Of a DNA stretch of 64,000 nt, positions 299-46,134 are shown piece by piece. Under the pieces are notes generated by a model, which saw only the letters and a list, made by a program, of their open reading frames with translations, had not been told where the DNA came from and did no database searches. Within the stretch, counting starts at the first letter, position 1. Every line of letters begins with the position of its first letter. This stretch comes from a virus, in IMG/VR virus record IMGVR_UViG_3300031237_000002, positions 1 through 64,000 of that record; one strand, given 5' to 3'. The translations under genes were made by a program, and so were the position numbers.

Positions 299-311
299 GA
301 TTAAATCCTCA

Positions 312-863
312 CTATGCTATACGTTCGATAATAACGATATTACCGTTTTCGTCGCGTTGCGTAACTTTATATTTAGGGAGTACCAGTGGCGGTGTTTTTG
401 GTGCAACCACTGGCGCCGGTTTGACACTTTGTAGTTTGGCAATCTGTTGTTCCAGTTTAGCGCAATTAGCTTGTGCCGCTTCCAGTTGCGTTTGCGCTCT
501 GATCTTATCTTGGCATTCCGCAGCCACTTGCATCCGCAGCGCGTCAATCTGGCTTTGCATTTCTTCCAGATCAGTAGAATGTTTGCTGCGCCTTGCATCT
601 AACTCCTGTTTAGCCGCGTCCTTTACATCGTCAATTTTGTGCAGCAATTCCTTATGCCGTTGTGCCCATTCCTTATTTGACTCTGATAGTTGCACTACCA
701 AAGCCGCGTTGTCATTTTCTGCTTTGAGTAATTTATCTTCTGCCGCTTGCACTTGGCGTAACAGTATTTTGCCGACGCTATCATCACCAGAAGGTGGCGC
801 CTTTGGTGTAATGGCGCTAGCCCGGTTTATTCTACGGTCCAGTAACTGCATTATAGGAGTCAT
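312..863 (-). CDS. Coiled-coil protein (copy 1)
   Basis: A 183-residue protein that is mostly one long heptad-rich, charged coiled coil (about residues 30-145), followed by a Pro/Ala linker and a short C-terminal region containing KVTQRDENGNIV. The start overlaps the stop of the giant transglycosylase gene in an ATGA arrangement, so it is probably translationally coupled. The last three quarters match the copy at 55554-56126, but roughly the first 45 residues do not, so the N-terminus has been exchanged. A structural, chaperone or fibre-attachment role is plausible but unproven. Confidence 0.8.
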   Translation of the reverse strand: MTPIMQLLDRRINRASAITPKAPPSGDDSVGKILLRQVQAAEDKLLKAENDNAALVVQLSESNKEWAQRHKELLHKIDDVKDAAKQELDARRSKHSTDLEEMQSQIDALRMQVAAECQDKIRAQTQLEAAQANCAKLEQQIAKLQSVKPAPVVAPKTPPLVLPKYKVTQRDENGNIVIIERIA

Positions 864-9267: not shown

Positions 9268-9827
9268 CACACATCACTCCCAAAAAGATCGCCATATTTA
9301 GAAGCGAAAGAAGTCGCGCCGCTAATAAGAGTGGAGGTGTAATTCTTACCGGCTGCTTTAGATGCGGCGTTGCCTTCAAACAGCGCCGCCGACGCTGCGC
9401 TCTTGCCACTCAGGCGCCGGGCTTGTGCGCCAACTTCATAGCTGCGTGCCTGTTCTTCACCTTCGTACAGGGCGAGCTGCGAGCGATAAGCGCCTTCCAT
9501 GTAGATGTCATTCAGGATGTTGACGACGTTCTGGTCAGATGCACCAGCCCCGGACGCCGCCGCCTTAGCCAGTGTCTTGCTGCCCAGCAACCCGGCCATG
9601 CGCCGTTCTTCGAAGGCGCTACGCTGTGATGCAGCACGAGCCTGACCGGCCAAGTAATCAGCCTGCCGCGCTTCGAACTCGGCCATAATCAGTTCGTTTT
9701 TTGACGTCTCTTCGGCCTGCTTGACAGCAGCCTTACCGGCGTCTTTCTGCCCCTTGGCGCTGGTAATCGTGCCAAGTACAGACAGACCGGCGCCGATGTA
9801 GGGCATTGCAACTGCTAAAGCGCCCAT
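9267..9827 (-). CDS. Internal virion protein, T7 gp14-like
   Basis: A 186-residue protein with a short Gly/Ala hydrophobic N-terminal segment (PYIGAGLSVLGTI), then Ala/Gln/Glu-rich helices and a Gly/Ser-rich C-terminus. This is the usual look of the small core protein of T7-like phages that helps form the ejection channel. It is the first of three consecutive ejection-protein genes (186, 611 and 2191 residues). The start is preceded by a good SD (GGGGAG) lying inside the end of the upstream gene, which it overlaps by 13 bases. Confidence 0.75.
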   Translation of the reverse strand: MGALAVAMPYIGAGLSVLGTITSAKGQKDAGKAAVKQAEETSKNELIMAEFEARQADYLAGQARAASQRSAFEERRMAGLLGSKTLAKAAASGAGASDQNVVNILNDIYMEGAYRSQLALYEGEEQARSYEVGAQARRLSGKSAASAALFEGNAASKAAGKNYTSTLISGATSFASKYGDLFGSDV

Positions 9828-10174
9828 CTGACGTACTCCCCAAATTCACATGGTTCGAAACCAAGGTAAGCCAAAAAGATACCGGACGTTGGAATGTCTT
9901 CGTCACGGTTGGCTATCAGGGTCCATTTATTTTCGTCGGCTATCTTAAGCATGGCTTTAGCGAACTTCATGACCGACAGTTTATTTTTAACCAATACGTC
10001 TTCCTTGCCTTCGGTGAAAACTACCATCTGATCGCGGGTCATACGAATAAACCCGCAAATGCCTACCAGCTTATCGTCAATCTCCAGAAAATAAGCACGC
10101 ATGGTGGGAACCTGAAACGGCAGTTCCCCGTAAAATTCCCCGAACAACTCGGCGGTAGCTGGAATAATTTTCAT
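9815..10174 (-). CDS. GNAT-like small protein between tail and core genes
   Basis: A 119-residue protein resembling a compact GNAT acetyltransferase fold: beta strands around AYFLEIDDKLVGICGFI, and a C-terminal TSGIFLAYLGFEPCEFG that looks like the last GNAT strand-helix. A canonical acetyl-CoA pyrophosphate loop (Q/RxxGxG/A) is not evident, so it may be non-catalytic. Many podoviruses carry a small GNAT-like protein between the tail tubular protein B and core protein genes. ATGA overlap with the upstream tail gene. The activity is uncertain. Confidence 0.6.
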   Translation of the reverse strand: MKIIPATAELFGEFYGELPFQVPTMRAYFLEIDDKLVGICGFIRMTRDQMVVFTEGKEDVLVKNKLSVMKFAKAMLKIADENKWTLIANRDEDIPTSGIFLAYLGFEPCEFGEYVRWAL

Positions 10175-22997: not shown

Positions 22998-23460
22998 TAT
23001 CAATCCCCTTAATATCGTTAATTGCTTTAGATAAAGTAAAAGCGACTCTGCGAGCCGCTTCAATTTCAGTCATTGTGTCAACGGGGATAAGCGTACCCCC
23101 TGTGGTTTCGTGTTCAACCTTCGACTTCCACTGTTCAGGGTGCTTGTTGGTCAACCAAAAGATACAAGCCGGGATGTTAGCTTCGACGTGAACCTGCTCA
23201 CGCATCATACCATCTTTGGTTTCTTTCCACTTGATGTAGTCATAGCCGAGGGCTTTCTTGTACAGGGCTGCCAGCACTTTGGTACTGGCATGATAGGCGC
23301 CGTCGTCCCACGCATAGGAAAACTCGGGGTAGCGATCACGCCACGCCCGCAACATACCTACGGAAATTCCAAGCAAGTTGGCAATCTCCATTTCTGTACA
23401 CCCCAGCATGCACAAGTCGCGTGCGCGGGCGGCGTAACTGGGATCATATTCGGTAATCAT
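22963..23460 (-). CDS. terS: Terminase small subunit
   Basis: A 165-residue protein with an N-terminal helix-turn-helix (ARDLCMLGCTEMEIANLLGI, residues about 13-32) and the C-terminal pattern typical of this family: ALGYDYIKWKE, then ACIFWLTNKHPEQWKSKVEH. It would recognise the phage packaging site and recruit the large subunit. The start overlaps the stop of the pseudaminic acid synthase gene as ATGA, which ties sugar synthesis and packaging genes into one translational unit. Confidence 0.85.
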   Translation of the reverse strand: MITEYDPSYAARARDLCMLGCTEMEIANLLGISVGMLRAWRDRYPEFSYAWDDGAYHASTKVLAALYKKALGYDYIKWKETKDGMMREQVHVEANIPACIFWLTNKHPEQWKSKVEHETTGGTLIPVDTMTEIEAARRVAFTLSKAINDIKGIDNGDSTVPVKTK

Positions 23461-24446
23461 TCTAGATCGTTCCCTAACATGGGTGTACCGGCTTTCATGT
23501 CATGCCGGGCTTTCATGCCAACGAATATATCAAAATTACTAGGGTTAGCGCCATAGTTAGGTCGAAGTATAGCCAGATCATCAGCGGTTATTACATGCCC
23601 GGCTTCTACATCTTTCACCAGCCAGATCGAGCGCCGGTATTGGAAGCTATCCTTCTCGCTTTCCCGACAGCCGAACGTCGCTTCTCCCATGGCCCTAGCT
23701 GCTTGGCGTGATGCAGTAACCATGCTCCTGAATTCGTCAGGCTCTAGTGAAAACTTGGCGTCAGGCCCACCATCCCTACGGGACAAGGTAAGGTGTTTCT
23801 CTATGACTATTGCGCCCAAGGCCACAGCGGCAATGGCGGCAACATTACTAAGGCTATGGTCAGACAGCCCCACATGGAAATTGTGATTACGCATTCTAAC
23901 CAAGGTTTCCAGATTAAAGTCTTCTGCGTTAGCAGGATATGCAGAAATGCAATGCAGATAAGTAATATCAGTTGCACCGTTACTCCTTGCCACTTCGTCA
24001 GCTTTATAAATTTCTGATAGCTCTGCCATGCCGGTAGAAATAATCAGCGGTTTGCGGGTTTGTGCACACGCGGCAATCAGCGGCAAGTGAATAATTTCAG
24101 GCGATGCGATTTTATAAATTGGGCAATCCAACTCAGTTAAAAACTCTACTGCACTTTCAGAAAACGGCGAAGCAAATGGTACGATGCCAATGCTACGCGC
24201 AAAGGTAAACAGTTCTTCGAACCACCACAACGGCGTTACGCCTTCCCAATACAGTTCGCGGTAATTCTTACCAGCCCATGGTCCTGACTCTATTATCACA
24301 TCAGCAGCTATCTCGCTAGGCGTGTACATCTGGAATTTAACAGCGTCAGCGCCAGCCGTCTTAGCCGCCATTATAAGATCAAGAGCGCGATGCTTATCGC
24401 CCAAGTGGTTACAGCTTATCTCGGCAATGATGAATGGATTAGTCAT
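23457..24446 (-). CDS. pseI: Nonulosonic acid synthase, PseI type
   Basis: A 329-residue NeuB-family synthase that condenses phosphoenolpyruvate with a 6-deoxy-HexNAc-type sugar to a nine-carbon acid. The TIM barrel is complete: AEISCNHLGDKHRAL, AGADAVKFQMYTP, a CPIYKIASPEI strand, IISTGMA, HVGLSDHS and IVIEKHLTL. The C-terminal SAF/antifreeze-like domain (about 270-329) contains YRRSIWLVKDVEAGHVI. Details such as QMYTPSE and KIASPE resemble PseI more than NeuB; LegI cannot be ruled out. It is embedded between terS and a 51-residue gene with overlaps on both sides. Confidence 0.88.
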   Translation of the reverse strand: MTNPFIIAEISCNHLGDKHRALDLIMAAKTAGADAVKFQMYTPSEIAADVIIESGPWAGKNYRELYWEGVTPLWWFEELFTFARSIGIVPFASPFSESAVEFLTELDCPIYKIASPEIIHLPLIAACAQTRKPLIISTGMAELSEIYKADEVARSNGATDITYLHCISAYPANAEDFNLETLVRMRNHNFHVGLSDHSLSNVAAIAAVALGAIVIEKHLTLSRRDGGPDAKFSLEPDEFRSMVTASRQAARAMGEATFGCRESEKDSFQYRRSIWLVKDVEAGHVITADDLAILRPNYGANPSNFDIFVGMKARHDMKAGTPMLGNDLE

Positions 24447-24594
24447 GCTTAACCTCTTCGCACTCTTCTGGATGGGTAAGATAATAATGTATCTGCTCTA
24501 ACGTAAGCGGGCCATCCGGTAGCTTATACCACTTAGCTGCCATAGCTTCTTTCATACGCTCAATGTCGAAATTGCACTCGTCATCGTCATTCAT
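24439..24594 (-). CDS. Small acidic protein in sugar cassette
   Basis: A 51-residue acidic protein (DDDEC near the start, HPEECEEVKHD at the end). It overlaps the GNAT gene upstream by 8 bases and the PseI gene downstream by 8 bases, strong evidence for a real coupled gene. No known domain. The pattern PLTLEQIHYYL suggests a short helical fold. Confidence 0.6.
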   Translation of the reverse strand: MNDDDECNFDIERMKEAMAAKWYKLPDGPLTLEQIHYYLTHPEECEEVKHD

Positions 24595-24988
24595 GTTGAT
24601 AGGTCGTCTGAATGAATTTAAAGCCAAGGCTTTCGAAGAATTTGCGGGACGCTTCGTTATCAGGATTAATGTTAGCCAAGAACGGACCTTCAAACCGGCG
24701 CAGCATTTCTTCGATGGCCGCTTTACCGTAGCCTTTACCGTGATGCTTGTTAAACACAAAAATGCCCAGCTCGTTGGCATGGGTCAGGTAGGTAGCGCCA
24801 ACAGGTTCGCCGCCATCGGTAATCAAATACCAAACCTGATACGGCACAGATTTAACGAACCGCGTATGCTCGCCAAAGGTTGGCATAGCCTTATGTGATA
24901 TAGCCTGATTAGGCGTACGTTCCAGCAGCAGTTTATAAAGCGTGTTGATGTCTTCGCGTGAATGCGTGTCAACGATGCGCAGATTCAT
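24587..24988 (-). CDS. GNAT N-acetyltransferase of the sugar cassette (PseH-like role)
   Basis: A 133-residue GNAT enzyme: the acetyl-CoA loop NKHHGKGYGKAAIEEML, and the final strand/helix INPDNEASRKFFESLGF. In the pseudaminic acid pathway PseH acetylates the 4-amino group made by PseC, and this is the best candidate for that step, though sequence resemblance to PseH itself is not clear. ATG at 24988 with SD GGAGG; ATGA overlap with the upstream hisF-like gene. Confidence 0.75.
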   Translation of the reverse strand: MNLRIVDTHSREDINTLYKLLLERTPNQAISHKAMPTFGEHTRFVKSVPYQVWYLITDGGEPVGATYLTHANELGIFVFNKHHGKGYGKAAIEEMLRRFEGPFLANINPDNEASRKFFESLGFKFIQTTYQHE

Positions 24989-25740
24989 AGCCGTACCTCC
25001 CAACCTTTGCTAGCCAAATATTCGCAAGCCTCTTTAGGCGTGCTGTCTGTCCACTGGAAAAAAGCCCCGGCTGCCACGGCACTTGCACCAACCTTAAGTG
25101 CCCGGTTCATGTGCTCATAAGAGCCGCAACCGCCGTTAGCGATAACTGGAATCGAAACCTCTTTAGCGATCTTGCGGATTAGCCCCAAGTCATAGCCGTT
25201 CATCATGCCGTCATTCTTAATGCCAGTGATGATTAGCTCTCCAGCCCCGCGTGCTTCCATTTCATGCGCGAAGGCAACCGGGCTATAGAAGTGCTGTCGC
25301 GTACCGCAGCGCGTCACCAGTGCCCACGAATAGCCATCCCACAAAGCGTCAATGGCTACGCATATAGCCTGACTGCCGAACCGACTAGCGCATTTACCAA
25401 TCAATGCAGGATCGTCGTAGGCAGCGGTTCCAATCACGACTTTATCAGCGCCGCTCGCCAGCAGCGTGCGTACTTGGTCGATGTGCGTAATACCGCCGCC
25501 CGCTGTCACTGGCATAAAGCATTGGTCGGTCAGCTCTTTAATCATGGAATAGTTAGGGCCTTGCGATTGCAGCGTAGCGCCAACATCCAATACGATAAGT
25601 TCATCAACACCACGGGCTTGGTGAATCTTGGCGGCTTGAAAGATGTTGCCGACAACGCGGGACGAATCAAACCGCTTACCTTTAACCAGTGCGCTATTAC
25701 GCATAAGCAGCACTGGTATAACCCTATGCGCTAGTCCCAT
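24985..25740 (-). CDS. HisF2-like acetamidino-modification protein
   Basis: A 251-residue TIM-barrel protein of the HisF family, in the subgroup that works with WbpG/PseA-type amidotransferases to form acetamidino groups on surface sugars. Visible: PVLLMRNSALVKGKRFD at the N-terminus, VTAGGGI, ADKVVIGTAAY, VAIDA and VIANGGCGS phosphate-binding loops. The first catalytic Asp of true HisF (in the PCLDVK motif) is replaced by Met here, while the Asp of VAIDA is kept. No HisH-like glutaminase gene is nearby, so ammonia may come from a host protein. SD GGAGG. Confidence 0.82.
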   Translation of the reverse strand: MGLAHRVIPVLLMRNSALVKGKRFDSSRVVGNIFQAAKIHQARGVDELIVLDVGATLQSQGPNYSMIKELTDQCFMPVTAGGGITHIDQVRTLLASGADKVVIGTAAYDDPALIGKCASRFGSQAICVAIDALWDGYSWALVTRCGTRQHFYSPVAFAHEMEARGAGELIITGIKNDGMMNGYDLGLIRKIAKEVSIPVIANGGCGSYEHMNRALKVGASAVAAGAFFQWTDSTPKEACEYLASKGWEVRL

Positions 25741-25741
25741 T

Positions 25742-26815
25742 TTAATCCTCCACTAACTCAGGCCGCGAAAACCGGTTAATCGTGGCTTGCAATTCAGCGA
25801 TTGTCATGTCGATACGTTCCAGAATCTGGCGAATCGGTACGCCCGCGTAGTGATGTGGGAAGCGCATACCGATTTGAAACAATTCTTCCATGGCATCTGC
25901 GCGGCTGATTACACCATTGCGGATATCCACGGACAATTGAGCGCATGCCCGACCATAGCCATACTTGCGGTGCATCATGTAGTCATGCAACCCGGTCATG
26001 GCGTTATCCAGATTTTCGAAGTTCCACCAGTTAGCCGGGGATGGCATCTTAATGCGCATGCCTGCTTCGACTGCTACATCAGCGTTACGCCGACTATTCC
26101 ACGGGCCAAGGTACTGGCCAAGGAAGTGCATTTCACAACCGGACTTGCGAATAGCCGTAGCATCTGGCGCTTGGTAATCCTGCATGTCGCGCTTGGTTAT
26201 ACCTTCCAGCCCAACCATATCGCTTGCTCTTAAACCGAGGAAGCCGCCGAACTCACTCACCCAGCGTTGAGTCATTTGCCGCGCTTCTTGTGAGCCGATA
26301 GGGCCACCATATGCCGCTTGCGGATTTTCTCCATAAAATACGAGTGGGATGCCGAATTTCACGGCCATGTTTAGAGGGGTAGTAAAAATAGCTACGTGCT
26401 CTGGCCATGAAATGTCACCAACCATAGTCAGCCCGAGATAGTTAAGCCGTGCCCGTACTTCCTGATTCGGCGTTACCTCAATGGTACTGGCATAACGTGA
26501 CAAGTTGCGGATGTTGTAGTGACCTAACTCTGTCAGCATACATGTGGTAGCTGTAACGAGTAGAGGACGAACACCAAGCTTAATAAGATCCATAACTTGA
26601 GCCGTAGAATCTTTACCACCAGACGAAGCGACAATACAGTCGTAGCCACTACTATTAGTACGGCCACGTTCCAACAATCTAACCAAGTCGTTTTTTCGTC
26701 CATCCCAATCGATCCTCTTTTGTTCATCATGGGAAAGGCAAGCACTGCATACGCCATTAACGAATGCAGTGTCTGGCCTTGTATCTGGCATTAAACAGCG
26801 CGTGCATCTATTCAT
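25742..26815 (-). CDS. N-acetyl sugar amidotransferase (WbpG/PseA family)
   Basis: A 357-residue PP-loop ATPase of the N-acetyl sugar amidotransferase family. It has an N-terminal zinc-ribbon-like pair CTRCLMP and CSAC, the PP-loop SSGGKDSTAQ near residue 65, and a C-terminal HHYAGVPIRQIL segment. Members convert an N-acetyl group to an acetamidino group on sugars such as pseudaminic or legionaminic acid precursors. The ATG at 26815 overlaps the stop of a 27-residue gene. It pairs with the HisF-like protein encoded directly downstream. Confidence 0.87.
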   Translation of the reverse strand: MNRCTRCLMPDTRPDTAFVNGVCSACLSHDEQKRIDWDGRKNDLVRLLERGRTNSSGYDCIVASSGGKDSTAQVMDLIKLGVRPLLVTATTCMLTELGHYNIRNLSRYASTIEVTPNQEVRARLNYLGLTMVGDISWPEHVAIFTTPLNMAVKFGIPLVFYGENPQAAYGGPIGSQEARQMTQRWVSEFGGFLGLRASDMVGLEGITKRDMQDYQAPDATAIRKSGCEMHFLGQYLGPWNSRRNADVAVEAGMRIKMPSPANWWNFENLDNAMTGLHDYMMHRKYGYGRACAQLSVDIRNGVISRADAMEELFQIGMRFPHHYAGVPIRQILERIDMTIAELQATINRFSRPELVED

Positions 26816-26895
26816 ATAAACCACCACACCATAAAAATAATTGCAGCAGTTACGCCCATAGCGATAAGGCTGTAAAGGACATCAGGCTCAATCAT
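26812..26895 (-). CDS. Tiny single-span membrane protein
   Basis: A 27-residue peptide, almost entirely one hydrophobic helix (LIAMGVTAAIIFMVWWFI). The stop overlaps the amidotransferase start as ATGA and the start overlaps the preceding small gene by 8 bases. Such precise packing argues for a real gene. Function unknown. Confidence 0.5.
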   Translation of the reverse strand: MIEPDVLYSLIAMGVTAAIIFMVWWFI

Positions 26896-26992
26896 CGTTG
26901 TCTTCCTCGTCAATGTCAGAGAAATAAACAAACATGCAGCCGATCATGATAATCAGCCCTACAGCAATCAGCGCGTAGCCAAAGTAGTCCAT
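26888..26992 (-). CDS. Tiny membrane protein with acidic tail
   Basis: A 34-residue protein: a hydrophobic helix (ALIAVGLIIMIGCMFVYF) and a strongly acidic C-terminus (SDIDEEDNDD). SD GGAGAAAT precedes the ATG. It is the first of two adjacent tiny membrane proteins inside the sugar cassette; they might anchor sugar enzymes or modify the host envelope. Confidence 0.55.
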   Translation of the reverse strand: MDYFGYALIAVGLIIMIGCMFVYFSDIDEEDNDD

Positions 26993-26993
26993 G

Positions 26994-27599
26994 TTATTTC
27001 TCCAGCAGGAAATAGGTAAGGTCGTAACCGTTGTCCTTGTGGTACTTGAACCCATAGTCCAGCAGCTTAAGATCAGGGTACATTTCCATAATCTTGTGCG
27101 CGAAGTCGTCAATCCACAACGCTGACCCTTGCCCGTGGTATTCCACTTCGCGCCGTACTGGCGAGTAGTATTCGGCAATGCAGATGTACTTCGACGAGCT
27201 GTTATAAATCTTTGCCAGCGTAGGGTTAAGTGCCGCGCTTGGTACATGCATCAGGAAACCACGGGTAATCACCAGTGGATATTGTTGTTGCAATGGGATG
27301 TCGAGGAACGCGCCAAGTCGTGCGCCAGTCCGTGACGCCAGTTCTTTATAAGCCTGTTCGTTTACTTCAATGCCCAAGCATTGGGTAGAAGTTGGTGAAC
27401 CAAATGCCAACTTACGCGCCTCATGGATAGCAACAAGGTTTTCGCCTTTGCCAGCGCCGGGCTCAAGTACAGAGTGAGCGTCACCAAGCACCCTATGCCC
27501 AAGCACATCCATCCAAAATATTGAACGATCTTCGAACTTGTTGCGCGTGTGATAGTCAGTACCAAACCCGCTAGACCACATCTTTTCTTGCTTGTTCAT
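26994..27599 (-). CDS. Pseudaminic-acid-biosynthesis-associated methyltransferase
   Basis: A 201-residue class I SAM-dependent methyltransferase. SAM-binding motif SVLEPGAGKGENLVA (about residues 43-57) and an acidic motif II (LGIEVNEQAY). The N-terminal KMWSSGFGTDYHTRN matches the family annotated as pseudaminic acid biosynthesis-associated methylase. It may O- or N-methylate the nonulosonic acid or its precursor. Start overlaps the upstream stop as TAATG. Confidence 0.8.
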   Translation of the reverse strand: MNKQEKMWSSGFGTDYHTRNKFEDRSIFWMDVLGHRVLGDAHSVLEPGAGKGENLVAIHEARKLAFGSPTSTQCLGIEVNEQAYKELASRTGARLGAFLDIPLQQQYPLVITRGFLMHVPSAALNPTLAKIYNSSSKYICIAEYYSPVRREVEYHGQGSALWIDDFAHKIMEMYPDLKLLDYGFKYHKDNGYDLTYFLLEK

Positions 27600-27823
27600 T
27601 AGCAGTTCTGCCCGGTAACTTGAGAGTAATCGACGATTACGTCAGACGACGTAACATAAATGCCAGTGATTTGTTCCTTATCACCAACGTGGCCGCGTGC
27701 AATGCTCATGGCATCTTGCAGTGTGCCAGTCACCACGGTGAATGTACGGCCATAGCCGGGCGCACCACCAATGCCCGCGCCCTGCACTGCTTTAGGCTCA
27801 ACGTTTACTTGATAGACATTCAT
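27599..27823 (-). CDS. Small hypothetical protein
   Basis: A 74-residue protein with a Gly-rich segment (GAGIGGAPGYGRTF) and a C-terminal beta-rich part (ITGIYVTSSDVIVDYSQV). No domain recognised. It lies between the CMP-sugar synthetase and methyltransferase genes and overlaps the latter by one base. Confidence 0.6.
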   Translation of the reverse strand: MNVYQVNVEPKAVQGAGIGGAPGYGRTFTVVTGTLQDAMSIARGHVGDKEQITGIYVTSSDVIVDYSQVTGQNC

Positions 27824-28438
27824 TCATGCTCTCCCGATTGGGTTGCAATATCGTGGATTTAAAACTTCATACATTTGCTCTGCCCGTGCCCAATCCTCTG
27901 GCGTGTTGATGTCGCATACCCGTGAAGCGTCTACATGGATCAACCGCGTATGCTTGGTAATCAGTGGCGAGCCACCTTTAAAGCTGAATGCCATGCCCCA
28001 ATAGAATTGGGCTGCATCCTGTAACGGTGGGTAGCCAGCAGACATAACGTATTCCACATAGTCACCACGCCAGCCGGACAGGATCACATAACCGGCCAGT
28101 AAATCTGCTACATCCATCAGCGGTGCAGTGGCGTACAGGCAACAGACATGATCGTAATCAAGTATTCCTTTACCATTAATGCAGTCAGCTACTACTTCTT
28201 GCGTGCCTGCAAACACCAATGACGGATCACGCCTACGCCATACCTCTGCGCCATATTCCTTTGCAATCTTGGATATCTCTACATCGTCCGTCGATACAAT
28301 GATACGGCTAAACAACCCACTGGCTTGTGCCTTCTCGATGCTATAAGCAATGATTGGCTTGCCGTGGAAGTCCTTGATGTTCTTGCGCGGGATGCGTTGA
28401 CTGCCACCCCGTGCAGGAATAATGCATATAGTGCTCAT
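27824..28438 (-). CDS. pseF: CMP-nonulosonic acid cytidylyltransferase (PseF/NeuA type)
   Basis: A 204-residue nucleotidyltransferase that activates the nine-carbon sugar with CTP. The family hallmark IIPARGGSQRIPRKNI is at residues 6-21, followed by IIVSTDDVEI and YATAPLM. The C-terminal VCDINTPEDWARAE is typical of PseF-type enzymes, which are shorter than bacterial NeuA. It supplies the CMP-sugar donor for a transferase that has not been certainly identified here. Confidence 0.87.
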   Translation of the reverse strand: MSTICIIPARGGSQRIPRKNIKDFHGKPIIAYSIEKAQASGLFSRIIVSTDDVEISKIAKEYGAEVWRRRDPSLVFAGTQEVVADCINGKGILDYDHVCCLYATAPLMDVADLLAGYVILSGWRGDYVEYVMSAGYPPLQDAAQFYWGMAFSFKGGSPLITKHTRLIHVDASRVCDINTPEDWARAEQMYEVLNPRYCNPIGRA

Positions 28439-28647
28439 TACTTGGTGAACTGGCTAAGTGGAGCGAAGCCGCCGTACATGTTGCACGGTTCTTGCCACTC
28501 GGCTGCGCACTTCTCGTTACCCTCAACGAAGCGCGTCCAAGTAATGCCGCTCAAGGTTTCGAAGTCGCTGGTCAGCTTATAGCCAGCACCGAAGACGCCA
28601 GCACTGAAAGCCAGCAACACTACAACGAACCAGATAAAGTATTTCAT
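28438..28647 (-). CDS. Small membrane-anchored protein with KC-CN-FAP motif
   Basis: A 69-residue protein: N-terminal membrane anchor (FIWFVVVLLAFSAGVFGAGY) and a short exported domain with two cysteines in KCAAEWQEPCNMYGGFAP. The rightward gene at 42477-42704 encodes a second protein with the same K-C-x8-C-N-x4-F-A-P arrangement, so these are paralogs. The cysteines could form a disulfide in the periplasm. Confidence 0.65.
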   Translation of the reverse strand: MKYFIWFVVVLLAFSAGVFGAGYKLTSDFETLSGITWTRFVEGNEKCAAEWQEPCNMYGGFAPLSQFTK

Positions 28648-28967
28648 TACAGAACCTCTGCCAGTACGACATCAACGATTTGGCAAGCCGCGTATTTAGG
28701 CTTGCGATTGGATAGTGAACGCATCACATGTTCGACACGCTGGATAATCCGAAGGCGTTTAACATCGGATATACCCGTGGTTTGCATTTGAATCTCAACG
28801 CCGCAATCCTCTGCAAGATGCAGCATGGTGTTAGCGAACTCGACGGACTGGTAAGGGTCAAGGAAATAGCAACGTTCCTCGGCCTGATTACCCGTTTCGG
28901 TTTGAGCACGAATGACGATCTGAGTGTGGTCGTCATTCGTCTCAATGCTAAGTTTGACGCCACTCAT
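28647..28967 (-). CDS. Hypothetical protein
   Basis: A 106-residue soluble protein with an N-terminal beta-rich part (SIETNDDHTQIVIRAQ) and a helical region (SVEFANTMLHLAEDCGVEIQ), and a basic C-terminus. The 75-residue product of 29110-29337 has a similar beta-then-helix layout. Function unknown. One-base overlap with the downstream gene. Confidence 0.6.
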   Translation of the reverse strand: MSGVKLSIETNDDHTQIVIRAQTETGNQAEERCYFLDPYQSVEFANTMLHLAEDCGVEIQMQTTGISDVKRLRIIQRVEHVMRSLSNRKPKYAACQIVDVVLAEVL

Positions 28968-29098
28968 GCTTTATTAAACTTCGACATGAGCCATGCACCA
29001 GCCTTGCGGCCCAGTGCGGTGATGGCGTCGGTGCCGGGCAAGCCCAACAGTGTATAGGCGCCGTACAAAGCCAGTGGATACAGGATAAAGTCAACCAT
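28964..29098 (-). CDS. Small hydrophobic protein
   Basis: A 44-residue protein with a hydrophobic N-terminal half (DFILYPLALYGAYTLLGLPG) that could span or lie on a membrane, and a basic helical tail (GRKAGAWLMSKFNK). The stop overlaps the following ATG as ATGA. Not recognised. Confidence 0.55.
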   Translation of the reverse strand: MVDFILYPLALYGAYTLLGLPGTDAITALGRKAGAWLMSKFNKA

Positions 29099-29109
29099 TG
29101 TCGTAACCC

Positions 29110-29337
29110 TCAATTGATGTATGTTACTTTGTCGCCCATGAAAGGATGGGTTTTACGGTACTCCTTCATTACAGCCTCTACATCCATGCTTGGGTCTTGC
29201 TCCTTAGCCACGTCGATCAATGACACGGCAATCTCTACAGATACTTGCGGTGTGAACAGACATACGTCTGATTCGGTGATAATCCCTACCGTGTCTTCGC
29301 CTACCTTGGCTACTTTGATGTTGCTAGGCCGTGCCAT
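29110..29337 (-). CDS. Small hypothetical protein
   Basis: A 75-residue protein, beta-rich at the N-terminus and helical in the middle (SVEIAVSLIDVAKEQ). I prefer the ATG at 29337, preceded by AAGGAC inside the end of the upstream gene; an in-frame start at 29367 would give 85 residues. Function unknown. Confidence 0.55.
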   Translation of the reverse strand: MARPSNIKVAKVGEDTVGIITESDVCLFTPQVSVEIAVSLIDVAKEQDPSMDVEAVMKEYRKTHPFMGDKVTYIN

Positions 29338-29338
29338 G

Positions 29339-29545
29339 TTATTGTCCTTTGGATTGTGTGCTGCCATCGAGGCTAATGCAGTCAGGGCAGATAGGGTTGC
29401 CTTTAACCACTATCCAGCCTTGTTTGTACAGATCAGCTTTAACTGTACGCATCTGGCGTCTGCCATGCCGTACAAATTCACCAGCCGTTGTCTTATTGCA
29501 TTGCGTACAAACAACCTCAGTCCACAACAAAATACCGATGTTCAT
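29339..29545 (-). CDS. Small zinc-ribbon-like protein
   Basis: A 68-residue protein with two CxxC pairs (CTQC at about 13-16 and CPDC at about 53-56) spaced like a zinc ribbon, and a basic middle (RHGRRQMRTVK). Probably binds zinc and perhaps nucleic acid. Overlaps the upstream gene by 4 bases. Confidence 0.6.
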   Translation of the reverse strand: MNIGILLWTEVVCTQCNKTTAGEFVRHGRRQMRTVKADLYKQGWIVVKGNPICPDCISLDGSTQSKGQ

Positions 29546-29808
29546 GCTATTTCCTCAAGCTCACAGATATAAACCAACTCCATAACGCATTTAACCCCAT
29601 CCAGCGGCCAAGCATGCTTAGGCGTTATCTTTACGTAATCCAAAACCAGCGGCGATACTATAATATGCCCTTCATCCAGCTTACGCTGCACAATACCTAA
29701 TGCCATATCCTTGCACATTTCCATAACAACACCATCAGCCAAAGCGGCTACAGCTTGTTCGTAGCTATCGAAGCTTTTATGCACCATGTCATACCATTTG
29801 CCGTTCAT
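29542..29808 (-). CDS. Small hypothetical protein
   Basis: An 88-residue protein with a helical N-terminal half (SYEQAVAALADGVVMEMCKD) and a beta-rich C-terminal half. No motif or membrane segment recognised. It lies between the aminotransferase and zinc-ribbon genes of the sugar cassette. Confidence 0.55.
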   Translation of the reverse strand: MNGKWYDMVHKSFDSYEQAVAALADGVVMEMCKDMALGIVQRKLDEGHIIVSPLVLDYVKITPKHAWPLDGVKCVMELVYICELEEIA

Positions 29809-29812
29809 AGTC

Positions 29813-30442
29813 TTACCTCCGACTAAAGATGTCGAATTGGCTTAAATCTGGATAGTTGTCATTAGGTAGGGGCGCGTTGGTGTATGGCAGAGTGCTAAGT
29901 TTGTGCATGAGGCGAGCCGCGACGTCCGGCGACATATAGCAGTGATAGCCAATTTCCGTAAACGAATCCTTGTTGGGTGGTACGCCTTCGGTCCTACCAT
30001 CAAAACGCATACGCTTAAGCCAGCGGTATGCGTTTTCGTCATTAAGCAATATCGCACCACCTTGGCTATCCCCCAGTGTCTTGGTTGTGTGGAAGCTGAC
30101 ACACATCATTGTGCCTAACTGGTACATGCCAGAGCTAAAGTATCTGGCGCTATCGTAAATAGGCAGCGGTGACAACTGATACAAACCAGCCCACTTTTCA
30201 TCCCTGAACGTAACCAGTGCACCAGCATGGATAATGGACATGGGGACTGATACATAAGTGCGCTTAGGTATAGACACGACAACAGGCTTGGTAGGATCAA
30301 CCTTGGCTTGGCCTTCGGTGTACCACTTAACAGCCAATAACAGCGCCATCGTGCAACTGTTAACAGTGACGGCATAAGGTGCGCCCGTGTATTCACATAG
30401 CGCTTTCTCAAAATCCCATACAACCTGAAAGGGGCTAGACAT
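29813..30442 (-). CDS. Compact DegT/PseC-like aminotransferase
   Basis: A 209-residue protein related to the PLP-dependent DegT/DnrJ/EryC1 aminotransferases (usually about 370-400 residues). The large domain features are present: FEKALCEYTGAPYAVTVNSC near the N-terminus, and the PLP-lysine region SFHTTKTLGDSQGGAIL (about residues 118-134). The C-terminal small domain is missing or very reduced. In a pseudaminic pathway PseC aminates the PseB product at C4, and this gene directly follows pseB with an 8-base overlap. It may be a minimal enzyme or need a partner; no frameshift is visible. Confidence 0.72.
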   Translation of the reverse strand: MSSPFQVVWDFEKALCEYTGAPYAVTVNSCTMALLLAVKWYTEGQAKVDPTKPVVVSIPKRTYVSVPMSIIHAGALVTFRDEKWAGLYQLSPLPIYDSARYFSSGMYQLGTMMCVSFHTTKTLGDSQGGAILLNDENAYRWLKRMRFDGRTEGVPPNKDSFTEIGYHCYMSPDVAARLMHKLSTLPYTNAPLPNDNYPDLSQFDIFSRR

Positions 30443-31295
30443 TTTTAATAATCTCGCTTAACTCTTCTACGGTTAAACGACGTGCATCACGGCTGCATAA
30501 ATCAGCGCGCATGCTTTCATGCCGTTTCTCGAAAGCCGACAACCCAGTGTGGAATGTCTCGCCACCATAAATAGACACAAAGGCTAAAGCTAAATCGCCC
30601 ATGCTATAAGCTGGCAGCCAGTCAGGTATAACCAGCTCGCCACCTTCCATAGTGCAAACCGTATCCCAAACCAATTTAACGGCTTCGCCCATGGTCATAT
30701 GGAAGCGCGTACACAATGGGTCAGTTAAAGTGATTGGCTTCCAGTGGTTATATTGTGCTTTCCACTTGGGCAACACGGAACCTTGGCTACCAGTGACATT
30801 GCCGTAGCGTGTGCAACTGAATTTAGTTTTACCGTGTGTGATGTTCGCGGCCAGCATCAGGGATTCGGCCAACGCTTTGGATTGGCCGTACGGCGAGCAT
30901 GGCTCAAAGGCTTTATCCGAACTTAAACCGACGACGTATTTAACATTTGAGGCAATTGCTGCCTCGATTACGTTCATCGTGCCCAATACGTTGGTCTTGA
31001 CCATTTCGTCAGGATTGTAGGCCCCGGTTTCGATCCTTTTCAGGGCGGCTGCATGGATCACGGCATCAATGCCCCTGCAAGCTCGCGTGAGCCTCGCCAG
31101 ATCCCTTACATCTCCGACCATGTACCTTACCCTTGGGTCATCTCCGAACGCCTCCAGCATCGCAGCCTGCGCATGCTCACCGCGTGAATAGACGCATATC
31201 CGGGCTATATCGGTTGAATCAAGGAGAAATCTAACGAAAGCGCGGCCAAATGAGCCAGTGCCGCCAGTTACCAAGATGGATTTGATCTGATTCAT
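30435..31295 (-). CDS. pseB: UDP-GlcNAc 4,6-dehydratase, PseB type
   Basis: A 286-residue short-chain dehydrogenase-type enzyme that starts the pathway by making a UDP-4-keto-6-deoxy-hexose. NAD(P)-binding loop VTGGTGSFG (residues 9-17), HAAALKRIETGAYNPDE, catalytic SSDKA (125-129) and YGQSK (136-140). These are typical of PseB/FlaA1-like enzymes, here somewhat shorter than the usual about 330 residues. It is the first gene of the leftward late operon, directly after the regulatory region at 31.3-31.9 kb. Confidence 0.88.
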   Translation of the reverse strand: MNQIKSILVTGGTGSFGRAFVRFLLDSTDIARICVYSRGEHAQAAMLEAFGDDPRVRYMVGDVRDLARLTRACRGIDAVIHAAALKRIETGAYNPDEMVKTNVLGTMNVIEAAIASNVKYVVGLSSDKAFEPCSPYGQSKALAESLMLAANITHGKTKFSCTRYGNVTGSQGSVLPKWKAQYNHWKPITLTDPLCTRFHMTMGEAVKLVWDTVCTMEGGELVIPDWLPAYSMGDLALAFVSIYGGETFHTGLSAFEKRHESMRADLCSRDARRLTVEELSEIIKNV

Positions 31296-34105: not shown

Positions 34106-34279
34106 ATGCTGAAAGTGAAGTCTGTACACCTGCATAACGTGCTGCGCAGCGGCGAGCACGTCGGCCACCCGATCTATTTTTCACTGGTGGCAGCCTTCGG
34201 GCATGGCCCCTATGCAATCGCCGCTGGTGTAATGGCCGTGATCTGCTTACTGTTGTTGATCGTCGTAAGTGGAGACTAG
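34106..34279 (+). CDS. Small membrane protein
   Basis: A 57-residue protein with a C-terminal membrane helix (IAAGVMAVICLLLLIVV) and a His-rich N-terminal half. Strong SD AAGGAGG ten bases before the ATG. Possibly an early membrane or host-interaction protein; not recognised. Confidence 0.6.
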   Translation: MLKVKSVHLHNVLRSGEHVGHPIYFSLVAAFGHGPYAIAAGVMAVICLLLLIVVSGD

Positions 34280-34283
34280 GGCC

Positions 34284-34448
34284 ATGCGCAAAGCAGTCAA
34301 GATTGGCCCGTTACACCTGACCTTGACGGATGTGATTTTAATCAAGGTCGGTTTGAGTGCAGCGTTAGCCGCTGCTTATCTGGTGCCACCACCATGGCAC
34401 ATCCCGGTGGGTATCGCATCCAATATGTTCTGGATGTGGCGCCTGTAG
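34284..34448 (+). CDS. Small membrane protein
   Basis: A 54-residue protein with one hydrophobic segment (VILIKVGLSAALAAAYLV) and a Trp/Met-rich C-terminus (FWMWRL). Starts four bases after the preceding stop. Not recognised. Confidence 0.5.
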   Translation: MRKAVKIGPLHLTLTDVILIKVGLSAALAAAYLVPPPWHIPVGIASNMFWMWRL

Positions 34449-42711: not shown

Positions 42712-42737
42712 TACTGGCAAGCGCCAGTATTTGTTGT
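42712..42737 (+). terminator. Rho-independent terminator before the array
   Basis: TACTGGC-AAGC-GCCAGTA (7-bp stem) followed by TTTGTTGT. It separates the small membrane protein gene from the TIGR-like array and suggests the array is transcribed from its own promoter. Confidence 0.7.
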
Positions 42738-42745
42738 ATCATTGT

Positions 42746-42863
42746 AATACAGCCAGCCAATTCAAGAAACCCAATGAGGCAAAGCGAGCCATCCTGCACA
42801 AGAAACCCAGTTTTAAGAAGCGAGTCACTAAAGAAAAGTAACCCACCCCCTTTAAGCGAGCCA
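42746..42863 (+). repeat. TIGR-like array 1 (upstream of tasH)
   Basis: Two 10-nt repeats alternate with 8-nt spacers. Repeat A (AAGCGAGYCA) lies at 42782, 42818 and 42854 with an exact 36-nt step, and a degenerate copy (AATACAGCCA) at 42746. Repeat B (AAGAAACCCA) lies at 42764, 42800 and, as AAGTAACCCA, at 42836. Spacers in order: gccaattc, atgaggca, tcctgcac, gttttaag, ctaaagaa, cccccttt. The last A repeat lies just before the tasH start codon, which is inside the next spacer. The transcribed strand is not known. Confidence 0.9.
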
Positions 42864-42868
42864 CCGCC

Positions 42869-43816
42869 ATGACAAATAAAATTGACATTAAAAAGCTTGT
42901 AGAAAAACATCAGAAACGCCTTTGCGCTTTGTCTGGTGAAACCCTCCCTGATGATTACAGCCTTGTAGATACCCATCGCAAGCAGCACAAGGCGCAAGGT
43001 GGCACCTACACGGAAGAGAACACCATTGTCGCAACGCCGCGTGCGCACATGGCCGAACATGGAACATTGCGCGACCGGGAAGACTGGCTGGAGCAACTTA
43101 AATCCTTGATGGATGATCGCTCCCAAGTCATGAAACTTATTTTTAAAATCAACAACCAGCTTCTGGCTGGCGAACGCCGCACTGACCATCTTTCGGAAGA
43201 CACCGAAGCCATGCTTAATGAAGCGCTGGTGTTGCCAGAGAAACGTCTTACCCGTATCGACAGTGCAATCACCAAGCACCTTAAGGCGCCAGACCGTAGC
43301 GTTCTGGTTGATTCCTTGATGGGCGTGCGTGGCGTCGGTCCTGTTACAGCGGCTGGCCTGCTGGTGTACATCGACCTTGAAAAAGCAGACAGCCCGTCAG
43401 CTTTGTGGAAGTATTGCGGCCTGCATTGTGCCTCACACCAGCGGTATGAGAAAGGCGTAGCAGGCGGCGGTAATAAAACTCTGCGCACCATCCTGTATAA
43501 ATGGGCATTGTGCATGGAGAAAGACGTTAAGAATCCTTACCGTGTTGTTTACGAACAGGATAAAGCGCGTCGGGAAGTATCCGATAAGTTGGTGAAATCC
43601 TACAACACACAAGGAAAGCTGGTGGAAGTGGCATGGAAAGATACCAAGCCTTCCCACCGTCGTGGTGCTGCTATCCGCGTAGCAGAGAAACATTTCCTTG
43701 CTGACTTCTGGATGGTAGGCCGCGAGCTGTTGGGTCTGCCAACGCGTACCCTGTATGTAGAACAAATTTTAAATCACGACGGCATTATTAAACCTGCCGA
43801 ACGCGGTTGGATTTAG
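42869..43816 (+). CDS. tasH: HNH + Nop/IS110-like protein, probable TasH
   Basis: A 315-residue protein. Residues 19-65 look like an HNH nuclease: D34/H36 in VDTHRK, GGTYTEEN with N51, and RAHMAEH with H60/H64. A helical, charged region follows (66-145). Residues about 145-225 resemble the C-terminal domain of IS110/IS1111 transposases and Nop-domain proteins: MGVRGVGPVTAAGLLVYID, LWKYCGLHC, GGGNKTLRTILYKWAL. The DEDD/RuvC domain of true IS110 transposases is absent. The gene is flanked by 36-nt-period dual-repeat arrays on both sides. TIGR-Tas systems are described as such arrays plus a Nop-domain protein, with HNH in TasH; the match in architecture and period is strong, but homology has not been computed. 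Confidence 0.8.
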   Translation: MTNKIDIKKLVEKHQKRLCALSGETLPDDYSLVDTHRKQHKAQGGTYTEENTIVATPRAHMAEHGTLRDREDWLEQLKSLMDDRSQVMKLIFKINNQLLAGERRTDHLSEDTEAMLNEALVLPEKRLTRIDSAITKHLKAPDRSVLVDSLMGVRGVGPVTAAGLLVYIDLEKADSPSALWKYCGLHCASHQRYEKGVAGGGNKTLRTILYKWALCMEKDVKNPYRVVYEQDKARREVSDKLVKSYNTQGKLVEVAWKDTKPSHRRGAAIRVAEKHFLADFWMVGRELLGLPTRTLYVEQILNHDGIIKPAERGWI

Positions 43817-44143
43817 CCATAATCGCTGAGTAAACCATAAACAGTAAGCGAGTCATTGTTCATAAGAAACCCACTCAGAACAAGCGAGTCATTATTCATA
43901 AGAAACCCATTGCGGACAAGCGAGCCAAGATATTAAAGAAACCCATGATTAACTAGCGAGTCATCATACCGAAGCAACCCATAATGGCGAAGCGAGCCAA
44001 CCCATCATAGAAACTCATTTCGTGAAAGCGAGCCATTGAAGAGAAGAAACCCAAGTCCATTAAGCGAGCCATTTCGTATAAGAAACCCAACTCCATTAAG
44101 CGAGCCACCTTCCATGAGAAACCCAACAAGGACTAGCGCATGA
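43810..44143 (+). repeat. TIGR-like array 2 (downstream of tasH)
   Basis: Repeat A (consensus AAGCGAGYCA) starts at 43846, 43882, 43918, 43954, 43990, 44026, 44062 and 44098, exactly every 36 nt; degenerate copies lie at 43810 (over the tasH stop) and 44134 (over the polymerase ATG). Repeat B (AAGAAACCCA and variants) starts 18 nt after each. All spacers are 8 nt: ttgttcat/ctcagaac, ttattcat/ttgcggac, agatatta/tgattaac, tcataccg/taatggcg, acccatca/tttcgtga, ttgaagag/agtccatt, tttcgtat/actccatt, ccttccat/acaaggac. The degenerate first unit has taatcgct/taaacagt. The last spacer contains AAGGA, placed as SD for the polymerase gene. Confidence 0.95.
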
Positions 44144-46134
44144 TTCACTTAGACTTCGAATCCCGCAGTGTCTGCAATCTAATAACAGACGGCACGTACA
44201 AGTACGCGGCACATCCAACCACAGACATTAGCTGTTTCTCATGGTGTATCGGGGATGGCCCGGTATCAGTCTGGTATAATTGGGAACCACTACCAGAAGG
44301 ACTGTTAGCCGCAGTAGAAGCAGGTTTATTAATTGCGGCATGGAACGCCAACTTTGAACGGCTGATGTGGAACATGGTGTTGATCCGCTATGGCGCACCA
44401 GCCTTGCCAATCAACCGTTTCTATTGCGTGGCAGCCAATGCCCGCGCCCGTGGCTACCCCGGCAAACTTGAAAAGGCCGCCCGGTTTGCTGGCCTCGGTG
44501 TCGATAAAGATATGGAGGGTTACAGGTTAATGATGAAGCTGTGCAGGCCACGGCGCATCGAGGAAGACGGCACCATCGTATGGTGGGAAGACTACAACGA
44601 TCTGATCCGCCAAGGCGAATACTGCGCGCAGGATACCGTCGTTGAGCGCGCTATGAGCGTGCTGTTAATGCCGCTCTCTGAACAGGAGCTGGCTGATTAC
44701 TGGCTGTCGGAAGAGATAAACGACAGGGGTATTCTGGTTGATCGTGAACTTGCAACCGCAGCAGTGGTTGGCGCCGAGTCAGAGAAACTAACTTCTGACG
44801 ATATCATCAAGAAACTTACCGATGGTGACGATGATACCGGTCATGGCGCTACGGCGTGCACACAAGTACAGCGTATTTTGAAATGGGTTGAAGAAGAATG
44901 GAAGCCTTTGACCGGTCTTAAATTAGTCGATGGCGAATGGAAGCAGATGCCTAGTCTAGCCAAGAGTGATGTACTCGATGCGTTACAAGAGGATGATATA
45001 CCGCCGCACGTTGCCGACGTCCTTGAACTCCGACTGGAAAACTCTAAGGCGGCTGTATCTAAGTTCGCCGCAATGCTTAATAAGAGCGACGAAGCCGGTT
45101 GCGTCAGAGGTTTATTTGTATTTCATGGGGCTGGACCGGGGCGGTTCACGTCATTCGGTTTACAAGTCCAGAATCTGGTAAGGGAATCAAATCTGGAAGC
45201 GATACCAATCCTCAAAAAGTACGGCATGAAAGGGCTGGCCATGATGGGCGAGCCGGTCAAGATTCTGGCGCAGATGGTGCGACCTGCATTCATGGCAGCG
45301 CCCGGCAAGACATTGTTGGTTGGTGACTTTTCGCAAATGCAAGTAAGGATTACTGCATGGCTGGCCGGGCAACAGAACCTGTTGCAGTTGTTCCGCGACA
45401 ACAAGGATGTTTACTGCGCCTTTGGCTCCATTGCCTTTGGCCGTCCTATCACCAAAGCCGATATCATCGAGCGGTTTGTTTCGAAGGGCTGCATCCTTGG
45501 TCTAGGCTTTGGTGGCGCGGAAGGCGCACTGGCGCGGACGCTTAAGAAAGAAAACATTATCCTGCCATTCAGCGAATTAAAAGAGCACAAGGAAACTTAT
45601 CGTGAAGTCTACCCGGAAATTAAACAACTCTGGTACACATTACGAGACGCAACATTACTCGCTATGTTTTCTCGCGGTACAATTGTACCCGTCGGGCCAG
45701 TTAGTTATATGTACGATGGTGAACATTTGTGGTGTCGTCTGCCGTCTGGACGGCTCATGTGTTACCCCTATGCCAGAGTCGTGCAAGATGATTACGGCGA
45801 CTGCATCGAATACCGTCGAGGTAATCGCAGCCCCAAATCAGGAGTGATGGACTGGCCGGTAGAGCGCTTGTGGTATGGCACCTTTACCGAAAACTTGGCG
45901 CAAGCCATTGAGTTTGACTTGATGATAAGTGCCATGCGCAAGTTGCGCGCCCGCTATGCGGAACGCATGCCAGTACGTATACATGTTCACGACGAGATAG
46001 TTCCAGAGGTTTTAATAGAAGAGTCAGAAGAACTGCTACCAGAATTCCTTGCGCTTATGGCAGAAGGCGAAGAGTGGAGCGAAGGTTTACCAATTGCCGT
46101 GGAAGGCCATATTACTCAGAGGTACGTAAAATGA
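44140..46134 (+). CDS. polA: Family A DNA polymerase with 3'-5' exonuclease
   Basis: A 664-residue replicative polymerase. Exonuclease motifs: LDFES (D5, E7), WNANFERL and YCAQD. Polymerase motif A is GDFSQMQVR (D396), motif B/O-helix RFVSKGCILGLGFGG (R445, K449, L453, F457) and motif C VHDEIV (D618, E619). By spacing with E. coli Pol I, L453 is residue 762 (Phe in E. coli), F457 is 766 (Tyr), and Q401 replaces steric-gate Glu710. No 5'-3' exonuclease domain. The ATG lies in the last degenerate unit of the TIGR-like array, with SD from the last spacer. Confidence 0.93.
   Translation: MIHLDFESRSVCNLITDGTYKYAAHPTTDISCFSWCIGDGPVSVWYNWEPLPEGLLAAVEAGLLIAAWNANFERLMWNMVLIRYGAPALPINRFYCVAANARARGYPGKLEKAARFAGLGVDKDMEGYRLMMKLCRPRRIEEDGTIVWWEDYNDLIRQGEYCAQDTVVERAMSVLLMPLSEQELADYWLSEEINDRGILVDRELATAAVVGAESEKLTSDDIIKKLTDGDDDTGHGATACTQVQRILKWVEEEWKPLTGLKLVDGEWKQMPSLAKSDVLDALQEDDIPPHVADVLELRLENSKAAVSKFAAMLNKSDEAGCVRGLFVFHGAGPGRFTSFGLQVQNLVRESNLEAIPILKKYGMKGLAMMGEPVKILAQMVRPAFMAAPGKTLLVGDFSQMQVRITAWLAGQQNLLQLFRDNKDVYCAFGSIAFGRPITKADIIERFVSKGCILGLGFGGAEGALARTLKKENIILPFSELKEHKETYREVYPEIKQLWYTLRDATLLAMFSRGTIVPVGPVSYMYDGEHLWCRLPSGRLMCYPYARVVQDDYGDCIEYRRGNRSPKSGVMDWPVERLWYGTFTENLAQAIEFDLMISAMRKLRARYAERMPVRIHVHDEIVPEVLIEESEELLPEFLALMAEGEEWSEGLPIAVEGHITQRYVK

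What the first reader, a model, noticed from the sequence alone, without database searches (positions are those of the whole stretch)
42746..44143. Probable TIGR-TasH RNA-guided system embedded before the phage DNA polymerase gene
Two different 10-nt repeats (AAGCGAGYCA and AAGAAACCCA) alternate with 8-nt spacers at an exact 36-nt period: eight intact units downstream and about three upstream of a single gene. That gene encodes an HNH-like N-terminus joined to an IS110/Nop-like domain and lacks the IS110 DEDD domain. Published TIGR-Tas systems consist of dual-spacer arrays processed into 36-nt RNAs and a Nop-domain protein, with HNH in TasH. The match in architecture and period is close; assignment is by eye.
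Basis: partly seen in the sequence, partly recalled or inferred. Interest (0 to 1): 0.97.

Follow-up and report, generated by a model that had tools for sequence, protein, structure and literature searches.

The report
Phage TIGR-TasH RNA-guided DNA-cutting system

Summary
In detail: two alternating 10-nt repeats and 8-nt spacers at an exact 36-nt period flank one gene (11 matches in 64 kb against 0.11 expected).

The 315-aa protein passes the NCBIfam TIGR-Tas cut-off, is 56.5% identical to the experimentally active TasH of Salicola phage CGphi29, and its AlphaFold model best matches the TasH-tigRNA-dsDNA cryo-EM structure (TM 0.87). It lacks the IS110 DEDD domain. The HNH-domain residues D34, R37, N51, H60 and H64 are invariant in 20 phage TasH proteins.

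Across 21 TasH phages (289 units) the repeats are conserved and the spacers carry no shared information. A co-linear sister phage keeps TasH beside the same upstream gene with entirely different spacers; a relative without TasH has other DNA there. This fits reprogrammable guides, not a structural repeat.

Likely mechanism: 36-nt dual-spacer RNAs guide a TasH dimer to cut both strands of foreign DNA. A systematic search found no excess of natural targets. One unit matches the sister phage's DNA polymerase gene at 15/16, as a lead only. New member of a known kind.

The parts
42714..42742 (+). weak sigma-70-like promoter (CTGGCA-17-TATCAT) just before the upstream array
   Evidence: 3 found in the region against 2.8 expected by chance, so position only; not evidence of function
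42746..42863 (+). upstream TIGR array: 5'-truncated edge repeat, 3 units, closing full edge repeat (42854-42863)
42869..43816 (+). tasH, 315 aa, RNA-guided HNH-Nop nuclease
   Evidence: NCBIfam NF052498 above cut-off; PDB 21kl_A E=7e-111; 56.5% identical to Salicola phage CGphi29 TasH
42917..43066 (+). HNH domain (residues about 17-66): D34, R37, N51, H60, H64 invariant in 20 TasH; beta-beta-alpha in the model
43082..43804 (+). coiled coil and Nop/IS110-like RNA-binding domain (residues about 72-312)
43810..43845 (+). first, degenerate unit of the downstream array; its truncated edge repeat overlaps the tasH stop codon
   Evidence: same layout in L102, L104, L108, L110
43846..44138 (+). eight further units of the downstream TIGR array (edge AAGCGAGYCA, 8-nt spacer A, loop AAGAAACCCA, 8-nt spacer B), closed by truncated edge TAGCG
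44126..44133 (+). last spacer B (ACAAGGAC); contains the AAGGA ribosome-binding site of the DNA polymerase gene
   Evidence: sequence; inference
44140..46134 (+). neighbour, not part of the system: family A DNA polymerase
   Evidence: PHROG phrog_17 E=1.2e-85

Best explanation
This is a phage-borne TIGR-TasH system. The two arrays are transcribed and cut in the middle of each edge repeat into 36-nt tigRNAs (half edge, spacer A, loop, spacer B, half edge). The AAG...YCA / AAG...CCA ends shared by edge and loop repeats act as box D and box C and seat one tigRNA on a TasH dimer. Spacer A pairs with one DNA strand and spacer B with the adjacent stretch of the other strand, so the target reads 5'-A-(0-2 bp)-reverse complement of B-3'. 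The two HNH domains then nick each strand 5' of the base that pairs with spacer position 5, which for 8-nt spacers predicts a break with 6-nt 3' overhangs. The most likely role is competition with other mobile DNA (co-infecting phages or plasmids), with spacers replaced over evolution as targets change. Shown here: anatomy, homology, fold, conserved HNH residues, spacer turnover. Taken from published work on SpTasH and TasR (PMC12045711): processing, pairing rule, cleavage. Inferred: expression in this phage, the overhang length, and the biological role.
For: Array. Protein family: NF052498 above cut-off; all 20 distinct TasH collected match it. Nearest characterised relative: Salicola phage CGphi29 TasH, 56.5% identity over 98%, whose array has the identical edge repeat AAGCGAGYCA and 8-nt spacers. 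Fold: pLDDT 91; best matches 9w04 TasH-tigRNA-dsDNA (TM 0.87), then TasR 9mty (0.53) and IS621 (0.46). HNH-domain residues invariant. 289 units from 21 TasH phages: 1.44 bits per column in edge, 1.29 in loop, 0.03 in spacers A and B. Edge positions 4 and 7 covary: C-G in 236 units, T-A in 21, all from phage L121, T-G in 17, matching the extra edge pair described for TasR. Sister phage G002: TasH 62% identical and next to the same upstream gene, all spacers different.
Against: No small-RNA or cleavage data exist for this locus. No natural target is supported: exact matches in the correct geometry are no more frequent than in control geometries, both in 2.9 Mb of phage DNA and in 0.97 Mb of relatives of this phage. 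The Pfam HNH model does not reach significance in this protein; one of 12 TasH members matches it at E = 0.00058. By motif spacing, the position of the first HNH histidine is an arginine (R37) in all TasH, including the active SpTasH. No rho-independent terminator follows the downstream array. Published TasR gave no protection against phage or conjugation in E. coli.
Confidence: 0.95

Rival explanations
1. The protein is an IS110-type RNA-guided recombinase and the repeats are degenerate element ends or bridge-RNA pieces.
For: Pfam Transposase_20 (E=1.9e-7) and NCBIfam IS110 (46.8 bits) match the C-terminal half; IS621 is a weaker fold match.
Against: The IS110 score is far below its cut-off of 140 and covers only profile positions 132-312 of 343, without the DEDD catalytic domain. 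An HNH-like domain lies there instead. Regular dual-repeat arrays flank the gene in other TasH phages.
Confidence: 0.02
2. The 36-nt repeats are a replication-origin or protein-binding (iteron-like) array next to the DNA polymerase gene and have no guide role.
For: Location in the replication module, directly before the polymerase gene.
Against: The same repeats sit beside tasH in 21 phages in different gene neighbourhoods, for example after the major head gene in CGphi29. Spacers carry 0.03 bits per column while repeats carry 1.3-1.4. In sister phage G002 the downstream array is separated from the polymerase gene by other DNA.
Confidence: 0.02
3. It is a TIGR-TasH locus that is decayed or silent in this phage.
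For: Several repeats are degenerate (TAGCGAGTCA, TAGAAACTCA, GAGTAAACCA); no terminator and only a weak promoter; no Shine-Dalgarno motif visible before the tasH ATG.
Against: The ORF is intact and keeps the invariant residues of 20 TasH. Repeat variation of this size occurs in other arrays, such as L103 and L109, and in the experimentally processed CGphi29 array.
Confidence: 0.08
4. It works like TIGR-TasH but serves the phage's own life cycle (for example cutting or nicking its own genome, or controlling the adjacent polymerase gene) rather than competition.
For: The last unit doubles as the leader and ribosome-binding site of the polymerase gene, so processing could affect its expression.
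Against: No unit matches the phage's own 66.7 kb with 2 or fewer mismatches in the target geometry. The array-polymerase fusion is not kept in sister phage G002.
Confidence: 0.07

Closest known systems
SpTIGR-TasH of Salicola phage CGphi29 (Faure et al. 2025, PMC12045711; PDB 9w04, 9w02, 9w03, 9vzx, 21kl)
   Same: HNH-Nop protein, 56.5% identical over 98%; identical edge repeat AAGCGAGYCA; 8-nt spacers; 36-nt period; truncated terminal edge repeats
   Different: loop repeat AAGAAACCCA instead of AAGACAACCA; arrays on both sides of the gene; sits in the replication module rather than after the major head gene; no terminator after the array; unrelated spacers
TasH of sister phage G002 (IMGVR_UViG_3300037470_000177, L103)
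   Same: co-linear genome (MCP 86%, TerL 74%, polymerase 60%, TasH 62% aa identity); tasH downstream of the same gene and upstream of the polymerase gene
   Different: all 18 spacer pairs read differ; extra third array about 1 kb upstream; small genes between array and polymerase
TIGR-TasR (Thermoproteota archaeon, PDB 9mty)
   Same: Nop domain, dual-spacer 36-nt tigRNA, fold match TM 0.53
   Different: RuvC instead of HNH, 9-nt spacers, other repeats
IS110/IS621 bridge-RNA recombinase (PDB 8wt6)
   Same: related RNA-binding domain (TM 0.46)
   Different: DEDD catalytic domain, bridge RNA, recombination; no dual-repeat array

Membership tests
TIGR-Tas (TasH) | two different alternating 8-12-nt repeats separated by short (8-9 nt) spacers, 36-nt period | tested here: met
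TIGR-Tas (TasH) | array next to a gene for a Nop-domain protein of the Tas family | tested here: met
   NF052498 103.5 bits against cut-off 100; fold match to TasH and TasR
TIGR-Tas (TasH) | N-terminal HNH nuclease domain | tested here: met
   TasH over full length in sequence and fold; beta-beta-alpha at 34-63; D34, R37, N51, H60, H64 kept. Pfam HNH itself not significant in this protein.
TIGR-Tas (TasH) | edge and loop repeats share box C and box D ends | tested here: met
   both begin AAG and end YCA/CCA; rule
TIGR-Tas (TasH) | array begins and ends with truncated edge repeats | tested here: met
   truncated starts at 42746 and 43810, truncated end TAGCG at 44134; the upstream array ends in a full edge repeat
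TIGR-Tas (TasH) | rho-independent terminator after the array (described in the source as typical, not defining) | tested here: not met
   none on the + strand after 43846; array runs into the polymerase gene
TIGR-Tas (TasH) | spacers vary between loci | tested here: met
   0.03 bits per spacer column across 289 units
TIGR-Tas (TasH) | processing into 36-nt tigRNAs bound by Tas | not testable with these tools
   needs small-RNA sequencing
TIGR-Tas (TasH) | tandem-spacer RNA-guided cleavage of DNA | not testable with these tools
   needs biochemistry
IS110 recombinase | N-terminal DEDD RuvC-like catalytic domain | tested here: not met
   IS110 profile matched only from position 132, 46.8 bits against cut-off 140; no DEDD Pfam hit
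CRISPR-Cas | one repeat of about 25-36 nt with spacers of similar size | tested here: not met
   two 10-nt repeats, 8-nt spacers

The most novel reading that the evidence does not exclude
One guide of this array has an identifiable natural target: the DNA polymerase gene of rival phages. Unit 8 of the downstream array (CCTTCCAT/ACAAGGAC) reads 5'-CCTTCCATGTCCTTGT-3'. It matches the polymerase gene of sister phage G002 at 15 of 16 positions with no gap (codons for KDMEG), while this phage's own polymerase differs there by four synonymous bases and would be spared. TIGR-TasH would then be a weapon between related phages.
Probability: 0.1. Interest if true: 0.75.

Novelty: new member of a known kind. 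Interest (0 to 1): 0.4.

Why it matters
TIGR-Tas systems were described in 2025 and their natural targets, spacer origin and role are open questions. This locus adds a clear TasH close to the only TasH with published biochemistry and structures that I found. It also adds a useful comparison: a co-linear sister phage with TasH but wholly different spacers, and a relative (G021) with other DNA at that place. That makes it possible to test, in one phage lineage, what changes when the system or its spacers change. The 8-nt spacers and short protein are of interest for compact genome-editing tools.

Tried and rejected
Self-targeting: no unit matches the phage's own genome with 2 or fewer mismatches in the A+rc(B) geometry. 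Targets in other phages: no excess over shuffled pairs in 0.8 Mb, over control geometries in 0.97 Mb of 21 relatives, or in 2.9 Mb for 1308 distinct spacer pairs (6 units with an exact hit against 2-7 in controls). IMG/VR scans for the targets of units D2 and D4 gave 48 and 18 stretches that look like database background and redundancy. A scan for the D8 target gave 50 stretches, 4 of them in polymerase genes (3 from one related group) and most in unrelated genes encoding KDMEG. Register sliding of spacers on a common target, suggested by L116 (CGAAACGG and GACGAAAC with the same spacer B): 4 cases against 0-3 in shuffles, not convincing. TasH prophages in GTDB genomes: none found with the patterns used. 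Close relatives of the polymerase in IMG/VR by short patterns: none, though G002 and G021 were found through TasH and the major head protein. IS110, iteron and CRISPR readings rejected as given under rivals.

Full report
Observation. Two 10-nt repeats, AAGCGAGYCA and AAGAAACCCA, alternate with 8-nt spacers at a 36-nt period on both sides of one gene. The half-unit pattern with up to 3 mismatches is found 11 times in the 64-kb window, all in these arrays, against a chance mean of 0.11. The edge repeat occurs exactly 10 times in the whole 66,677-base virus record, nowhere else than here. I add one unit: the downstream array starts at 43810 with a truncated edge repeat that contains the tasH stop codon. 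The same fusion of stop codon and first edge repeat is seen in relatives L102, L104, L108 and L110. There are thus 3 upstream and 9 downstream units. By the published convention AAGCGAGYCA is the edge repeat, because the arrays start and end with truncated copies of it, and AAGAAACCCA is the loop repeat.

Protein. The 315-aa product matches NCBIfam NF052498 (TIGR-Tas endonuclease, 103.5 bits, cut-off 100) and only the C-terminal part of IS110. phmmer against the PDB gives TasH (21kl and seven further entries) at E = 7e-111. tblastn gives Salicola phage CGphi29 at 56.5% identity over 98%, the SpTasH reference of Faure et al. (PMC12045711). That phage's array uses the same edge repeat and 8-nt spacers. 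An alignment of 20 distinct phage TasH gave an AlphaFold2 model with pLDDT 91. Its best PDB matches are the TasH-tigRNA-DNA complexes (TM 0.87 for 9w04), then TasR (0.53) and IS621 (0.46).

Active site. D34, R37, N51, H60 and H64 are invariant in all 20 TasH; position 36 is H, D or S. By motif spacing (D-x-[HD]-R-x-x-P...GG...N...H...H) the arginine R37 stands where a canonical HNH has its first histidine. This alignment is my inference; it also holds for SpTasH, which cuts DNA in an HNH-dependent way, so it is a family trait and not a defect.

Relatives. One scan of IMG/VR with the repeat pattern returned 90 stretches, nearly all carrying arrays and most with a Tas protein nearby. A profile scan returned 22 TasH loci. 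In 289 units from 21 TasH phages the edge repeat holds 1.44 bits per column, the loop repeat 1.29 and both spacers 0.03. Edge positions 4 and 7 change together (C-G, T-A in phage L121, T-G), as expected for the extra edge pair seen in the TasR structure. No spacer pair is shared between distinct TasH phages; identical arrays occur only in near-identical contigs (L047/L090, L106/L107, L116/L117).

A natural comparison. The record G002 (contig of L103) is co-linear with this phage over most of its length: major head protein 86%, terminase 74%, polymerase 60%, TasH 62% identity. Its tasH lies downstream of the same gene and upstream of polymerase, yet all spacers differ. G021 belongs to the same lineage (head protein 84%, polymerase 55%), shows no TasH match and no array, and carries other DNA at that place. 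So in this lineage the locus holds TIGR-TasH in two phages and other cargo in a third; where TIGR-TasH is present the guides turn over fully.

Targets. The published rules (spacers pair to opposite strands; cut 5' of the base paired to spacer position 5; 8-nt 3' overhangs for 9-nt spacers) fix the geometry as 5'-A-(0-2)-rc(B)-3', because the alternative order would give 5' overhangs. With 8-nt spacers this predicts 6-nt 3' overhangs. In this geometry there is no excess of matches over controls anywhere I looked, and none with 2 or fewer mismatches in the phage itself. The best single lead is unit D8, which matches the polymerase gene of G002 at 15/16 with no gap; the phage's own gene differs at the homologous site by four synonymous bases. 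I estimate about 0.03 such matches by chance for 12 units on that genome, before allowing for the other genomes and geometries tested. Exact copies of the 16-mer occur at the homologous polymerase site in 4 of 50 IMG/VR stretches, three of them from one related group. I treat this as a lead only.

Verdict. This is a TIGR-TasH system, a new member of a known kind; its biochemical mechanism is very likely that of SpTasH, and its biological role, probably competition between mobile elements, is inferred and untested.

Noticed in passing
window 1-11405 and 55244-66677 of the record (window end plus L190): About 11.4 kb is repeated in the same orientation at 88.7% identity (83% over the first 0.6 kb), offset about 55.26 kb. 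Several relatives are about 55 kb, so the record seems to run past one genome length into a divergent strain, or holds a large duplication.
   Followed up: partly
window 23457-31295, - strand: A pseudaminic-acid biosynthesis cluster on a phage: PseI synthase above cut-off, PseF-, PseB- and PseC-like proteins below cut-off (PseC partial), Pse methylase, WbuX amidotransferase and a WbuZ-like protein; conserved in sister phage G002.
   Followed up: partly
L031 10552-11415, L054 10401-11294, L059 493-1308: A second group of array-linked Tas proteins carries an HNH-like N-terminus with DRI(I/T) or KRII in place of DHI and a C-x-x-C-[DE]-W end without the final histidine; possibly an inactive HNH.
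   Followed up: partly
L116 5137-5208: Neighbouring units have overlapping spacers A (CGAAACGG, GACGAAAC) with the same spacer B, as if two registers of one target had been taken; the overall number of such cases is not clearly above chance.
   Followed up: partly
L313-L315 (G021, reverse complement about 34266-34410): At the place of TIGR-TasH this relative has two runs of GGCNN pentanucleotide repeats, each ending in the same GCATGGGTGCTTTATGCACAAG hairpin-like sequence.
   Followed up: no
L003-L092: TIGR arrays with this edge repeat are common in IMG/VR phages; most of the 90 pattern hits belong to Tas proteins only distantly related to TasH, some with 30-48 units.
   Followed up: partly
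window 44126-44138: The last spacer B and truncated edge repeat double as ribosome-binding site and leader of the DNA polymerase gene; not conserved in G002.
   Followed up: partly
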